A DNA stretch of 41,011 nt, from NCBI GenBank assembly GCA_947628985.1, contig CANRCA010000003.1:1-41011 (forward strand), read 5' to 3'. The number at the start of each line of letters is the position of its first letter. Position 1 is the stretch's first letter. The notes beneath the pieces are model-generated. The model did no database searches, was not told the origin of the DNA, and saw nothing but the letters and a program-made list of their open reading frames with translations. A program made the position numbers and the translations under genes. Positions 34,549 to 40,610 of the stretch are shown one piece after another. Source of the DNA: an uncultured Bacilli bacterium. Its GTDB lineage: Bacteria; Bacillota_I; Bacilli_A; RF39; UBA660.

Positions 34549-34577
34549 TTGACAAAGCATTAAAAATATGGTATGAT
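34549..34577 (+). promoter_or_regulatory. promoter of the large structured RNA
   Basis: The plus strand reads TTGACA, 17 nt, TATGAT. The predicted start site (34584-34585) coincides with the first base of the helix that closes the RNA. Confidence 0.88.
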
Positions 34578-34583
34578 TAAATG

Positions 34584-35047
34584 CGTATGGAGCACTATGC
34601 TAGTCAAACATACCACTAGAAGATGGGGCTAAAAATCCATTAATTGTACAAAAGTGAGACTTTATATATTTTGCTTCTTTCGCCCAGATTGGGGTGAGTA
34701 TATAATTTTAGATTTAAGGATATTATGCAATGGCATGTATATGAATCCTTTTATCAAATCGAGTGTATATGAACGTACATGTCGTGAGTGATTTATTGGG
34801 ATAGAAATTGAAAAATAAATTGCAAAAGCGAATAAAAGTGAATTATGTTTGTTTGGGAAAACCTCTAGTGTGTCTATATTATAAGGATTGAAGTGCGGAC
34901 TAAGTGGTGATCGAGTGATCATTATGGTAACAAATGATTTATAATTTTAAAGAGAAATCGCCTACGGGTAACTAAGGGTAATTATGAGAGAAATTCAACT
35001 CGACCAAAGCCGTAAAATTAATTTATAATATTCCATGCAAATTTTTT
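34584..35047 (+). ncRNA. large structured non-coding RNA, about 460 nt, class not identified
   Basis: This stretch has visibly higher G+C than its flanks and no plausible gene. A promoter points into it. Its 5' end GTATGGA (34585-34591) pairs with TCCATGC (35032-35038), and a six-U run follows at once. Internal helices include CTAGT/ACTAG (34600/34615), TTATATA/TATATAA (34662/34699) enclosing CCCA/TGGG, AAGGAT/ATCCTT (34716/34745) enclosing ATGC-aatg-GCAT, TGATC-gagt-GATCA (34908-34921) and TACGG/CCGTA (34963/35010). The GAGT loop, as TCGAGT at 34911, can pair with ACTCGA at 34998, a pseudoknot. RNase P and tmRNA signatures are absent. It could be a known large class (OLE, ROOL, GOLLD) or a new one. 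The next gene's ribosome site starts only 3 nt after the U run. Confidence 0.75.
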
Positions 35048-35059
35048 CTAGGAGATAAA

Positions 35060-35578
35060 ATGAAAGATAAATGGATCATTAAGACTTTTTTAATGACTTT
35101 TTTTATAGCATTATTTTTTAATAGTGTTTCAAATGTCATTTCAAATAAATGTAATAATTTAATAATATTAATTTTACTTGCAATATTATTTATAGCTATC
35201 GGTATTATTTTTGATATAATTGGTACTGCTGTTTTAACTGCTAAAGAATCAACTTTTCATGCTAAAAGTGCTAAAAAAATTAAAGGCTCAAAACAAGGAG
35301 TATATTTAATTAAAAATTCTAGTAAAATAGCAAGTATATGTAATGATGTTGTTGGTGATATATGTGGTATTGTTAGTGGTTCTGTTAGTGCTATTATAGG
35401 AATTACAATATCAAATACTTTTAATATATCTGTTATATTAATTACTTTAATAATAAGTTCTATTATTTCAGCGTTAACTGTTGGTGGAAAAGCAATAGGA
35501 AAAAAATTTGCTATTAAAAATAGTGATGAAATAATATTCTGTGTTGCTAAAATTATTTCTAAATTTAAAAAAGATTAA
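35060..35578 (+). CDS. four-TM membrane protein downstream of the large RNA
   Basis: This 172-aa protein has about four membrane helices (roughly 8-26, 33-57, 100-122 and 125-143). A motif GTAVLTAKESTFHAKSAKKI after the second helix is faintly like the start of CNNM/DUF21 (CorB-type) transporters, but the CBS and CorC parts are absent. AGGAGA precedes the ATG by 6 nt. The 12 nt between the RNA's U run and this ATG contain the ribosome site, so expression probably depends on read-through of the RNA or on its folding. The function is unknown. Confidence 0.72.
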   Translation: MKDKWIIKTFLMTFFIALFFNSVSNVISNKCNNLIILILLAILFIAIGIIFDIIGTAVLTAKESTFHAKSAKKIKGSKQGVYLIKNSSKIASICNDVVGDICGIVSGSVSAIIGITISNTFNISVILITLIISSIISALTVGGKAIGKKFAIKNSDEIIFCVAKIISKFKKD

Positions 35579-37574: not shown

Positions 37575-37835
37575 ATGAAAGAAAAATTTATATTTAAAGA
37601 TGAAAAACAATTATATTCTACAATAGGAAAAAATATAAGATATTATAGAAAATTATATAGTTTAAATAAAAAGGAATTAACACAAGAAGCACTTGCTGAA
37701 ATTGCAAATGTATCTACTTCTCTTATTGGAAATTTAGAAAGTAAAAAAACTTATCAAGGGATAAGTATATATAATTTATATAAAATAAGTAATATTTTAG
37801 AAGTTCCTATTGAAAACTTTTTTATTGATCGTTAG
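37575..37835 (+). CDS. small XRE-family regulator 1
   Basis: This 86-aa protein is a single HTH domain. IGKNIRYYRKLYSLNKK leads to LTQEALAEIANVSTSLIGNLESKK (recognition helix region), then SIYNLYKISNILEVPIENFF. It is clearly paralogous to the XRE protein at 38193-38441 (shared TQExLAE, SLIGxLESxK, NLYKISxILEVPI). AGGAGA lies before the ATG. Its last 14 bases overlap the 3' end of the convergent XRE gene. It is probably a DNA-binding repressor; the target is not known. Confidence 0.88.
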   Translation: MKEKFIFKDEKQLYSTIGKNIRYYRKLYSLNKKELTQEALAEIANVSTSLIGNLESKKTYQGISIYNLYKISNILEVPIENFFIDR

Positions 37836-38085
37836 AATTAATTGGTTCAAAAAATTTTTCTATTGAAGTATTTAATACTATAGAAATTTTATATAATGTT
37901 ATTAAAGCTAATCCTTCACTACCTTTAGTACTTTCAAATTTTCTAATGAATTCAGGCGATACGCCTACATCAACTGCTAGTTGTTCTTGAGTAATCTTAT
38001 TAATTTTTCTATATTTGATAACATTATATGCTACTGTTTCTATAATATTTTCATCAAAATCAAATTCTCTTTTAAATTTTGTCAT
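37822..38085 (-). CDS. small XRE-family regulator 2
   Basis: This 87-aa single HTH domain protein (KITQEQLAVDVGVSPEFIRKFEST, then LITLYKISIVLNTSIEKFFE) has the same length and layout as the two neighbouring XRE genes but is more diverged. It is convergent with XRE 1 (14-bp overlap) and divergent from XRE 3. The AAGGTGA ribosome site partly overlaps a perfect 14-bp palindrome, a likely autoregulatory operator. Confidence 0.88.
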   Translation of the reverse strand: MTKFKREFDFDENIIETVAYNVIKYRKINKITQEQLAVDVGVSPEFIRKFESTKGSEGLALITLYKISIVLNTSIEKFFEPINSNDQ

Positions 38086-38094
38086 AAAATCACC

Positions 38095-38108
38095 TTATCT
38101 ATAGATAA
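38095..38108. promoter_or_regulatory. 14-bp perfect palindrome, candidate XRE operator
   Basis: TTATCTATAGATAA is its own reverse complement. It sits directly on the 5' side of the XRE 2 ribosome site, in the 107-bp region between the divergent XRE 2 and XRE 3 genes. Dimeric XRE repressors bind such sites; which of the three proteins uses it is unknown. Confidence 0.6.
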
Positions 38109-38134
38109 TTTTACACATTTTTATTTCAATTTTA

Positions 38135-38153
38135 TGTAGAGTGATACTATACA
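38135..38153. promoter_or_regulatory. imperfect inverted repeat, second candidate operator
   Basis: TGTAgAGTgatACTaTACA is a 19-bp inverted repeat with one mismatch per arm. It overlaps TATACA at 38148-38153, which could act as a -10 (with TTTCAA upstream) or a -35 (with TATAAT at 38171) for XRE 3. Confidence 0.5.
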
Positions 38154-38192
38154 TTTTTAAAATTTTATTTTATAATAAATTAGGTGATGTTA

Positions 38193-38441
38193 ATGACACA
38201 AGATGAATTAAATCGTATTATTGGTAAGAATATAAAAAAGTATAGACTTTTATATAATAAAAATCACTCAAGGATGACGCAAGAAAAATTAGCTGAAGCA
38301 ATAAATGTTTCTGTTTCTTTAATAGGTAGTTTAGAAAGTAATAAAATTAATAAAGGTATAGGAATTGTGAATTTATATAAAATTTCTGTTATACTAGAAG
38401 TACCAATAAATAAATTTTTTGAGGTGAATGATGATAAATAA
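38193..38441 (+). CDS. small XRE-family regulator 3
   Basis: This 82-aa single HTH domain protein is close to XRE 1: IGKNIKKYRLLYNKN, TQEKLAEAINVSVSLIGSLESNK, NLYKISVILEVPINKFF. The frame opens with GTG and ATG codons at 38184-38189, but AGGTGA (38182-38187) places the start at the ATG at 38193. It overlaps the next gene by 11 bp, and that gene's GAGGTGA ribosome site lies within its last codons, so the two are a coupled pair. Confidence 0.88.
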   Translation: MTQDELNRIIGKNIKKYRLLYNKNHSRMTQEKLAEAINVSVSLIGSLESNKINKGIGIVNLYKISVILEVPINKFFEVNDDK

Positions 38442-38865
38442 ATTAATTAATAAAAATAATTTAACTAATAAAGAGGAACTTAATGATATATGTAATAATA
38501 TATTTTTAAAAAAGAAAAATGTTGATACCTTCTTAATAAATCTTGATAATTATATAACGTTTTTAAAAAAATATTTAACAATAGATTATAATGATTTACT
38601 TTATATTATATTTAATACTATTAATAATGATATGTATAATTCAATTATTAAAAAAGAAAAAGAATTTAAAAAGATATTTTTATTGAAATACAATGAAAAT
38701 ATCGAATTTATATCAATTTTTATGAAATTAAAGAAAAGAAATTTTAATAATTTAATAACTCATTTAAATAATTGCAAGAGAAGATGTTATACATATTTTG
38801 AAGATATTGGTTTAAGAAATTTAAAGTTTTATTTAGCATTATTTCAAGAATTAGAAACTAAATAA
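38431..38865 (+). CDS. small helical protein coupled to XRE 3, unknown function
   Basis: This 144-aa Lys/Asn/Ile-rich, mostly helical protein has no membrane segment and no family I recognise. An ATG at 38428 is also in frame, but 38431 has the better distance (6 nt) from the AGG of GAGGTGA. Translational coupling to the XRE regulator suggests a regulator plus effector or regulator plus partner pair, a layout shared with toxin-antitoxin modules, though no toxin motif is visible. Its 3' end overlaps the convergent Fic gene by 8 bp. Confidence 0.7.
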   Translation: MINKLINKNNLTNKEELNDICNNIFLKKKNVDTFLINLDNYITFLKKYLTIDYNDLLYIIFNTINNDMYNSIIKKEKEFKKIFLLKYNENIEFISIFMKLKKRNFNNLITHLNNCKRRCYTYFEDIGLRNLKFYLALFQELETK

Positions 38866-39931
38866 ATACATCATACATATTTTTATAAGTGAAAGTTACT
38901 CTATTAGTTCCTTTCTTTTTTTCTTTTATTAAATATCCTTCTTCTACTAATTTATTTAAAACTTTATTAACTGAATTAATATGTAAATTACATTCTTTAA
39001 CTAAATCATTAGTAGTAAATACTATTTTTTTAACAATTACTGGATATACTTTATAAATAGTAGTTCCACCAATTTTATCTTTAAATTCTTCTAAGTCATT
39101 ATTGTATATTTTATTTAATTTTTTGATTTTTTTAATATTTAATAAACATTGCTCTTTAATACATTCTAAGATTGTTTTAATAAATTTATTTATATCATCA
39201 TTAGAATCAGCAGATAATAAAGTAAAATAAGTATTTTTTAAATTTTCTAAACTTTCTGATATGAATAAAATTGGAACTTCTTTTTTATAATATGATAATT
39301 GCATAGGAATAAATAATCTTCCTAATTTACCATTACTTGAAACATAAGGATGTATTTTTTCTAATTGAAAGTGTGACAAAATTACAGAAATAAAATCAGG
39401 ATCTGTATTTTCATTTATATATTCTATTAAGTTTTTCATTAAATCATTAATATCTGTATATACTGGTGGAACATATGAAACACTAGAACCAGCTAAACCT
39501 GGTTTTAATAAAAATGTTTGAATTTTTCTAAATTTTCCACTAGCTTTTGTTTTATTATTTTTTTTACAATTTATAAACATTGATTTATTTATTTTATTAA
39601 ATGTATCAATATCTATTTTTCCATTTGATATATCATTGATACCAATTAATAATGATTTTTTTAAATTATTAAATTGAATAACATCATTATTTTCTATCAT
39701 ATATGGAGTGTGAAACATATATTCTTTTTCTATTTTACTACCATCTATTTTAAATGAATAGAAAATATCAGAAGTAAATGCACATTCTAAAAATGATTTA
39801 TAATCATATGCCATGCTTTTTAAAAATCCTTTATATTCACCATAGATTTCTTCTGTTTCACATATTAATTTTATTAATTCATATGATTTATCATATTCTA
39901 AAGGTAATTTTTTTGCTTTATATGGTTCCAT
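38858..39931 (-). CDS. Fic-family protein with degenerate active-site motif
   Basis: This 357-aa protein has the Fic_N and Fic layout with a C-terminal winged helix (about 300-350; TTNDLVKECNLHINSVNKVL). The Fic motif HPFx(D/E)GNGRxxR appears as HPYVSSNGKLGR (194-205). The catalytic His is kept, but the acidic Mg2+ ligand and first Gly are both Ser, and the Arg after NG is Lys. The inhibitory-helix region reads SFKIDGS (about 59-65) instead of (S/T)xxxE(G/N). Active Fic proteins transfer AMP to target hydroxyls; activity here is doubtful. GGTGAT precedes the ATG. Confidence 0.87.
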   Translation of the reverse strand: MEPYKAKKLPLEYDKSYELIKLICETEEIYGEYKGFLKSMAYDYKSFLECAFTSDIFYSFKIDGSKIEKEYMFHTPYMIENNDVIQFNNLKKSLLIGINDISNGKIDIDTFNKINKSMFINCKKNNKTKASGKFRKIQTFLLKPGLAGSSVSYVPPVYTDINDLMKNLIEYINENTDPDFISVILSHFQLEKIHPYVSSNGKLGRLFIPMQLSYYKKEVPILFISESLENLKNTYFTLLSADSNDDINKFIKTILECIKEQCLLNIKKIKKLNKIYNNDLEEFKDKIGGTTIYKVYPVIVKKIVFTTNDLVKECNLHINSVNKVLNKLVEEGYLIKEKKKGTNRVTFTYKNMYDVFI

Positions 39932-39957: not shown

Positions 39958-40003
39958 AAAAAAATAAAAAAATATACATATATTTTTAAAAACATGTATA
40001 TTT
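39958..40003 (-). terminator. intrinsic terminator of the 120-aa gene
   Basis: On the minus strand a 10-bp stem AAATATACAT/ATGTATATTT with a 14-nt loop is followed by a long U-rich tract, overlapping the stop codon. Confidence 0.75.
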
Positions 40004-40364
40004 AATATGGATTTGGATAATCTAATAATCCATCACCCGAACCATTAACCCAATAAATTTTATTACCTTTAATTTTAAAATCATAATTTATTTTATATTT
40101 TTGTTTTCCATCTGTATTTTTATATATAAAAGTTATATTAGTATTTCCATTTGATTTTGGTATGAATACCCATTTATTATTTTCTTCTGTTTTTAACTCT
40201 AGATTATTATTACTTAATTCATAATACCATTTATAACCTTCTTCTTTAAAATCATATTCTATTGTAACTTGATCAGAATATTTTAATAAATAATTAGGTT
40301 TATAAAAAAATAATATAAACACAAGTAGAATAGCAGTAATTCCAAAAATTATATAATATCTCAT
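40002..40364 (-). CDS. membrane-anchored small protein, possibly chagasin-like fold
   Basis: This 120-aa protein has an N-terminal hydrophobic helix (about 3-20) and a beta-rich outer domain of about 95 residues. EEGYKWYYELSNNNLEL followed by NKWVFIPKSNGNTNITFIYKN recalls the GYxW...WxF...GxxxIxxxY spacing of chagasin (I42) cysteine-protease inhibitors, but the central G-G loop and RPW motif are not evident, so this is tentative. AAAGGAGTG lies just before the ATG and only 5 nt after the U run of a terminator hairpin, so expression may need read-through. Confidence 0.65.
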   Translation of the reverse strand: MRYYIIFGITAILLVFILFFYKPNYLLKYSDQVTIEYDFKEEGYKWYYELSNNNLELKTEENNKWVFIPKSNGNTNITFIYKNTDGKQKYKINYDFKIKGNKIYWVNGSGDGLLDYPNPY

Positions 40365-40380
40365 AACACTCCTTTATACA

Positions 40381-40416
40381 CAAAAAGCAACCAGCCCTGA
40401 TAAAGCTTGATTGCTT
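40381..40416 (-). terminator. terminator hairpin ending the right-hand RNA and preceding the 120-aa gene
   Basis: On the minus strand AAGCAATCA pairs with TGGTTGCTT (9 bp including one G-U) around a 14-nt loop, followed by five U residues. Its U run ends at 40382, 18 nt before the next start codon. Confidence 0.75.
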
Positions 40417-40570
40417 CGAGTTTTCGAAAAAAGAATTATAATCATTTATATTAAAGAATTTGGCTTTAATATAAATACTTCTAAATATTATCAGTATTTA
40501 GCATAATTTCTTATCATTTTGAGTTTTACTTTCTCAACGATATATCATTTGTCCTTAGTAGATAAGTATT
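40382..40570 (-). ncRNA. hairpin-rich non-coding RNA or long leader
   Basis: The minus strand has, in order, CTTATC/GATAAG (40566-40561 with 40515-40510) enclosing TTGAG/CTCAA; CTAAATA/TATTTAG (40501-40481); a perfect 12-bp stem TTTATATTAAAG/CTTTAATATAAA (40475-40445); TTCGA/TCGAA; and a final terminator hairpin. No reading frame fits. The 5' end is uncertain: the nearest good promoter is at 40883-40911, which would make the transcript about 495 nt and include a tandem repeat. It could be an independent small RNA, an attenuating leader of the 120-aa gene, or a tracrRNA-like molecule. Confidence 0.5.
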
Positions 40571-40610
40571 CTATTTCTTAAATTAATAAGATTATTATTA
40601 TTTATACTTT

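What the first reader, a model, noticed from the sequence alone, without database searches (positions are those of the whole stretch)
34549..35047. Large (about 460 nt) structured RNA of unidentified class
Seen directly: a TTGACA-N17-TATGAT promoter whose start site falls on the first base of a 7-bp helix joining the two ends of the element (34585-34591 with 35032-35038), a U run right after the 3' arm, six or more internal helices, a hairpin loop GAGT able to pair with ACTC at 34998 (pseudoknot), and G+C clearly above the flanks in a very AT-rich genome. No RNase P (GAGGAAAGTCC) or tmRNA (tag frame, T arm) signatures. Known bacterial RNAs of this size and complexity are few (OLE, ROOL, GOLLD, group II introns). 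It is either a divergent member of one of these or something new.
Basis: partly seen in the sequence, partly recalled or inferred. Interest (0 to 1): 0.88.

Follow-up and report, generated by a model that had tools for sequence, protein, structure and literature searches.

The report
Compact OLE RNA beside oapA
The 460-nucleotide structured RNA is a shortened member of OLE, a known family of large bacterial RNAs that work at the cell membrane with the protein OapA; it is a real gene but not a new class, and its main interest is how far this RNA can shrink in tiny gut and rumen bacteria and still be kept.

Summary
The element is OLE RNA (Rfam RF01071): 216 bits against a gathering score of 50, end to end over the model at 34571-35052. 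The gene 7 nt downstream of that match (35060-35578) is OapA, the obligate OLE partner. In 35 related compact RNAs 95% of pair cells form standard pairs and 83 of 112 pairs show changes on both sides; controls are far lower. The promoter is conserved.

It is compact (482 against 616 model positions): P7 and P8 are gone and P9 is cut to about 40 nt. Loss of P7/P8 is published as 'variant 2', typical of RF39 gut bacteria (PMC11332333). So: a new member of a known kind.

Beyond the window, 98 of 145 genomes of its family carry OLE, full-length or compact. OapC and the MpfA CorC domain are absent from all 145, and OapB was not found where sought. Three genomes carry a roughly 380-nt 'mini-OLE' without P5-P8, still followed by oapA where checked. 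I found no description of that form in the papers read.

The parts
34549..34577 (+). sigma-70-type promoter (TTGACA, 17 nt, TG-TATGAT)
   Evidence: conserved in 80 of 89 OLE loci at 10 of 12 or better
34571..35052 (+). OLE RNA gene as matched by Rfam RF01071 (216 bits, model 1-616); the likely transcript starts near 34584
34585..34591 (+). end-to-end closing helix (taken as P1), 5' arm, pairing with 35032-35038
   Evidence: changes on both sides in 4 of 7 pairs
34605..34617 (+). P3 (34605-34612) and P3.1 (34614-34617), 5' strands: 8 + 4 = 12 bp, the length proposed to cross the membrane (PMC12265935)
   Evidence: partners 34844-34851 and 34837-34840
34622..34641 (+). P4 hairpin with A-rich loop GCUAAAAA (34628-34635), dimer bridge B1 in the cryo-EM structure of another OLE RNA
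34662..34705 (+). P5/P5.1 with loop GCCCA (34682-34686)
   Evidence: the loop is present in 89 of 91 RNAs
34711..34755 (+). P6/P6.1 with loop containing AAUGGCA
34756..34781 (+). short joining segment where the P7 and P8 helices of full-length OLE are missing (80 model positions replaced by 17 nt)
   Evidence: no-P7/P8 class
34782..34831 (+). P9, truncated: 50 distal model positions replaced by 4 nt, so the L9.3 kissing loop is absent
34876..35031 (+). P12 (34876-34885 with 35022-35031), P12.1 (34894-34898 with 35010-35014), P12.2 (34911-34916 with 34998-35003), P13 (34918-34938, GGUAAC loop) and P14 (34939-34987)
   Evidence: helix names assigned from the text of PMC9723947 and PMC12265935
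35042..35047 (+). U run after the closing helix; not conserved
35050..35054 (+). ribosome-binding site AGGAG of oapA
35060..35578 (+). oapA: OLE-associated membrane protein, 172 aa, CNNM-like, with the invariant D-V-x-G-D-I-C-G motif

Best explanation
34571-35052 is the ole gene of an uncultured rumen/gut Bacilli: a compact OLE RNA of about 460 nt, transcribed from its own promoter, followed at once by oapA. SHOWN here: family membership, covarying structure, loss of P7/P8, P9 truncation, linkage to oapA. INFERRED from published work on OLE: the RNA dimerises, binds OapA at the membrane, and the particle acts as a metal-ion (Mg2+) and stress-handling device in which the RNA stands in for the cytosolic regulatory domains of MpfA/CorC-type transporters. 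In this lineage the particle appears stripped down to RNA, OapA and perhaps bS21, without OapB and OapC.
For: RF01071 at 216 bits, end to end, no competing family. OapA downstream of OLE on the same strand in 86 of 91 loci; OapA found in 99 and OLE in 98 of the same 145 genomes. The two OapA-only genomes have contigs that end 106-256 nt upstream of oapA. Covariation: 83 of 112 pairs changed on both sides, score 0.457 against 0.191 shuffled and under 0.09 slid. OapA has a weak CNNM match, as published for OapA. OapC (PF01248) 0 of 145; MpfA CorC domain 0 of 145; bS21 131 of 145; map abuts infA with no KOW gene between in every same-family locus where both could be read; the KOW proteins read are L24 and NusG.
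Against: No transcript, membrane or dimer data for this organism. The genome is a 68% complete draft. 216 bits is low beside full-length family members (up to about 437 bits). OapC and OapB, essential in Halalkalibacterium halodurans, are not found, so function cannot be carried over in full. 47 of 145 genomes of the family lack an OLE match and yet also lack the CorC domain, so the 'OLE or MpfA' rule does not hold here in a simple form.
Confidence: 0.85

Rival explanations
1. The RNA is mainly a cis-regulatory leader of oapA (5' UTR or attenuator) rather than a trans-acting part of a particle.
For: oapA starts 7 nt after the match, with its ribosome-binding site at the very 3' end of the matched stretch; gene order is conserved in 86 of 91 loci.
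Against: In G020, G159, G076 and G022 no oapA was found in the stretch taken around OLE, the two genes lying on different contigs or kilobases apart, and G078 and G108 have 635-941 nt between them. OLE RNA is a stable abundant RNA that binds OapA in H. halodurans (PMC9723947). No conserved terminator was seen.
Confidence: 0.1
2. A decaying relic of OLE in a shrinking genome, no longer functional.
For: Reduced genome; loss of P7, P8, distal P9, OapB and OapC.
Against: Strong covariation and invariant blocks among compact forms; promoter and oapA kept; 17 of 18 genomes of the genus carry it.
Confidence: 0.03
3. A new large RNA class unrelated to OLE.
Confidence: 0.01

Closest known systems
OLE RNA, full length (RF01071; H. 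halodurans, Clostridium acetobutylicum)
   Same: End-to-end model match, P4 A-rich loop, P5.1 and P6.1 loops, P12-P14 core, oapA in tandem
   Different: About 130 nt shorter; P7, P8 and distal P9 absent; no OapB or OapC gene found
OLE variant 2 (PMC11332333, common in RF39)
   Same: Entirely lacks P7 and P8; reduced gut bacteria; no OapB or OapC
   Different: P9 is also truncated here; whether the published variant 2 consensus includes that could not be seen (figures not held)
OLE variant 1 (PMC11332333, common in TANB77)
   Same: Short P9
   Different: Variant 1 has shortened rather than absent P7/P8 and often lacks the end of P13; here P13 with its GGUAAC loop is kept
MpfA/CorC-type Mg2+ exporters
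   Same: OapA is CNNM-like (weak PF01595 match)
   Different: OapA has no CBS or CorC domains; OLE RNA is proposed to act in their place

Membership tests
OLE RNA (RF01071) | Covariance model score above the gathering threshold over the whole model | tested here: met
   216.1 bits against 50, model 1-616
OLE RNA (RF01071) | oapA gene in tandem | tested here: met
   35060-35578
OLE RNA (RF01071) | Published helices supported by covariation in this lineage | tested here: met
OLE RNA (RF01071) | Typical size of about 600 nt with P7, P8 and long P9 (typical, not required: published variants lack it) | tested here: not met
   482 nt match, P7/P8 absent, short P9
OLE RNA (RF01071) | Protein partners OapB and OapC (not required: published as missing from RF39 and TANB77 clades) | tested here: not met
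   PF01248 0 of 145; map-infA without a KOW gene; only L24 and NusG among KOW proteins read
OLE RNA (RF01071) | Transcribed, membrane-bound, dimeric | not testable with these tools
   promoter only
OLE variant 2 | P7 and P8 entirely absent | tested here: met
OLE variant 2 | Score class of PMC11332333 (235-310 bits on the authors' own model) | tested here: inconclusive
   216 bits on the Rfam model; the authors' model is not held, so the scores are not comparable
OLE variant 2 | RF39 clade host (common but not exclusive) | tested here: inconclusive
ROOL, GOLLD, raiA, HEARO, group II intron, RNase P, tmRNA | Rfam match or ARAGORN hit | tested here: not met

The most novel reading that the evidence does not exclude
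OLE erodes module by module while some dimer contact is kept. P7/P8-less RNAs like this one drop the P9 kissing loop (bridge B3) but keep the P4 A-rich loop and the P5.1/P6.1 loops (B1 and most of B2). A roughly 380-nt mini-OLE in three genomes drops P5-P8 (B2) but keeps the P4 loop and a self-complementary P9 loop (B1, B3). The irreducible particle would then be P1-P4, the P9 stem and P10-P14 (domain 2) plus OapA, putting the essential function in the domain that cryo-EM has not resolved.
Probability: 0.35. Interest if true: 0.6.

Novelty: new member of a known kind. Interest (0 to 1): 0.35.

Why it matters
OLE is one of the few large, highly conserved bacterial RNAs whose biochemical function is still open. 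Natural minimal versions that survive beside oapA without OapB, OapC, P7, P8 and (in the smallest) P5-P6 show which parts can be spared, and give short constructs for structure work on domain 2 and for reconstituting an OapA-RNA particle.

Tried and rejected
Protein-coding explanation: the antisense 86-aa frame is open in 1 of 35 relatives and has no Pfam match. Other RNA classes: no Rfam match. Pseudoknot GAGT/ACTC: it is helix P12.2. U-run terminator: not conserved. Folding energy as proof of structure: z only -1.5. Phage or mobile origin: no OapA relative in viral contigs with the single-protein query, which finds close relatives only. Compact form explained by loss of OapC: rejected, since OapC is absent from the whole sampled family, full-length carriers included. 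'OapA without OLE' as a sign of undetected OLE: the two cases, G124 and G126, are contig ends. NCBIfam gave no useful match to OapA. Automatic segment measuring failed for some RNAs: G168 was scored as having P7/P8, but the Rfam alignment shows it lacks them, and G105 is ambiguous; the tree counts carry these errors.

Full report
What it is. Rfam RF01071 (OLE) matches 34571-35052 on the + strand with 216.1 bits (gathering 50, E = 1.2e-59) over the full model, and nothing else competes. It is the only copy in the draft genome (68% complete). The next gene, 35060-35578, is OapA: it aligns with the proteins downstream of OLE in 21 related loci, with an invariant D-V-x-G-D-I-C-G block, and has a weak CNNM match, as described for OapA in PMC11332333. 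In 86 of 91 family loci oapA lies downstream on the same strand, usually within 80 nt.

Promoter, closing helix, helix-rich body and raised G+C are all real. The promoter is conserved: 80 of 89 loci have a match of 10 of 12 or better, against 15 of 445 control windows. The proposed pseudoknot is helix P12.2. The U run is present in the window but not conserved. Minimum free energy is not exceptional (z -1.5). An alignment of 35 compact RNAs scored on the OLE structure gives 95.2% standard pairs, 83 of 112 pairs with changes on both sides and a covariation score of 0.457, against 81.1%, 49.9 and 0.191 in shuffles and under 46%, under 38 and under 0.09 when slid. Caveats: the structure was taken from the family model and the window, which favours it in the slide control; shuffles do not keep relatedness; and part of P3 is in different registers in different sequences (75.7% paired).

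How it differs from textbook OLE. Eighty model positions of P7 and P8 are replaced by 17 nt, and 50 distal positions of P9 by 4 nt. PMC11332333 describes variant 2 as entirely lacking P7 and P8 and common in RF39, and says RF39 and TANB77 organisms largely lack OapB and OapC. My searches agree: PF01248 (OapC) 0 of 145 genomes of the family. No KOW gene lies between map and infA in any same-family locus where both could be read (L192 was not parsed and L202 is cut at a contig end). That OapB (YbzG) normally sits between map and infA is from memory, not tested here; the paper says only that it lies in a translation operon. Among nine genomes the KOW matches number at most two each; those whose reading frames I read are L24 and NusG. 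MpfA's CorC domain is also absent, 0 of 145, while bS21, a reported OLE-binding protein (PMC12054373), is in 131 of 145.

Family picture. OLE occurs in 17 of 18 genomes of the genus, all about 480 nt, in 98 of 145 genomes of the family and in 167 of 288 in a wider draw, in which all rows listed belong to the same family. Lengths fall in two groups: a P7/P8-less group (about 41 of 91 measured, one ambiguous) and a group with these helices; P9 is about 40-60 or about 80-105 nt, and the two traits are not tied. On an OapA tree P7/P8 absence needs three changes as scored; correcting G168, which I had scored wrongly, should leave two (my inference, not rerun). Nearly all P7/P8-less RNAs then sit in one 39-row clade. 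P9 shortening needs nine changes on the same tree. OapA is short and many branches are weak, so these are rough counts.

Mini-OLE. G145 (378 nt), G075 (381 nt) and G353 (378 nt) match the model from 1 to 616; the alignments of the first two lack P5, P6, P7 and P8, and the sequence of the third has the same architecture by eye. In G145 and G075 oapA begins 4 nt downstream, and the two OapA proteins form one clade inside the P7/P8-less group. Both keep the P4 A-rich loop and carry a self-complementary stretch in the P9 loop (CTGATCAG, TGATCA), although a simple fold of the region does not always give that exact hairpin. In the cryo-EM dimer of C. acetobutylicum OLE the bridges are the P4 loops (B1), L5/L6/L7 (B2) and the L9.3 kissing loop (B3) (PMC12286853). 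Compact RNAs like the window have lost B3 and keep the loops of B1 and most of B2; minis have lost B2 and keep B1 and a candidate B3. That every form keeps some dimer contact is a hypothesis from sequence only; my palindrome search is crude and missed or mis-assigned some P9 loops.

Mechanism. From published work (PMC9723947, PMC12265935, PMC11332333): OLE and OapA form a membrane particle needed for Mg2+, cold and alcohol tolerance in H. halodurans, and OapA resembles the CNNM domain of MpfA, so the RNA may replace the CBS/CorC part of such transporters. P3 plus P3.1 in the window is 8 + 4 = 12 bp, the length the authors propose for the membrane-crossing helix. I consider a stripped RNA-OapA (and perhaps bS21) particle of the same kind most likely here; none of this has been tested in this lineage.

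Verdict. New member of a known kind (OLE variant 2-like), with a more reduced relative nearby that deserves follow-up.

Noticed in passing
L134:1469-1846 (G145), L135:1463-1843 (G075), L242 (G353:C9:18515-18892): Mini-OLE of about 380 nt lacking P5-P8, with a palindromic P9 loop; oapA 4 nt downstream in the first two.
   Followed up: partly
window 40481-40573 (-): PGK RNA motif (RF03040, 82.9 bits) whose next downstream gene in the window is a 120-aa protein of unknown function (40002-40364), not a recognised phosphoglycerate kinase; a terminator-like hairpin lies between them near 40378-40418 (by eye).
   Followed up: partly
G065:C3:70010-70394 (L136) and G065:C14:9541-10150; G299:C37 and G299:C101: Genomes with two OLE matches; the second copy in G065 runs off its contig end. 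Paralogues or contamination, not resolved.
   Followed up: no
family-wide: 47 of 145 genomes have no OLE match and nearly all of these no OapA, and the CorC domain is absent from all 145, so many members of this family appear to have neither OLE nor MpfA.
   Followed up: partly
window 37575-38441: Three small XRE-type helix-turn-helix proteins in a row (37575-37835 +, 37822-38085 -, 38184-38441 +), judged by eye from the translations.
   Followed up: no
window 38858-39931 (-): Fic/DOC family protein with a C-terminal winged-helix-like region (PF02661).
   Followed up: no
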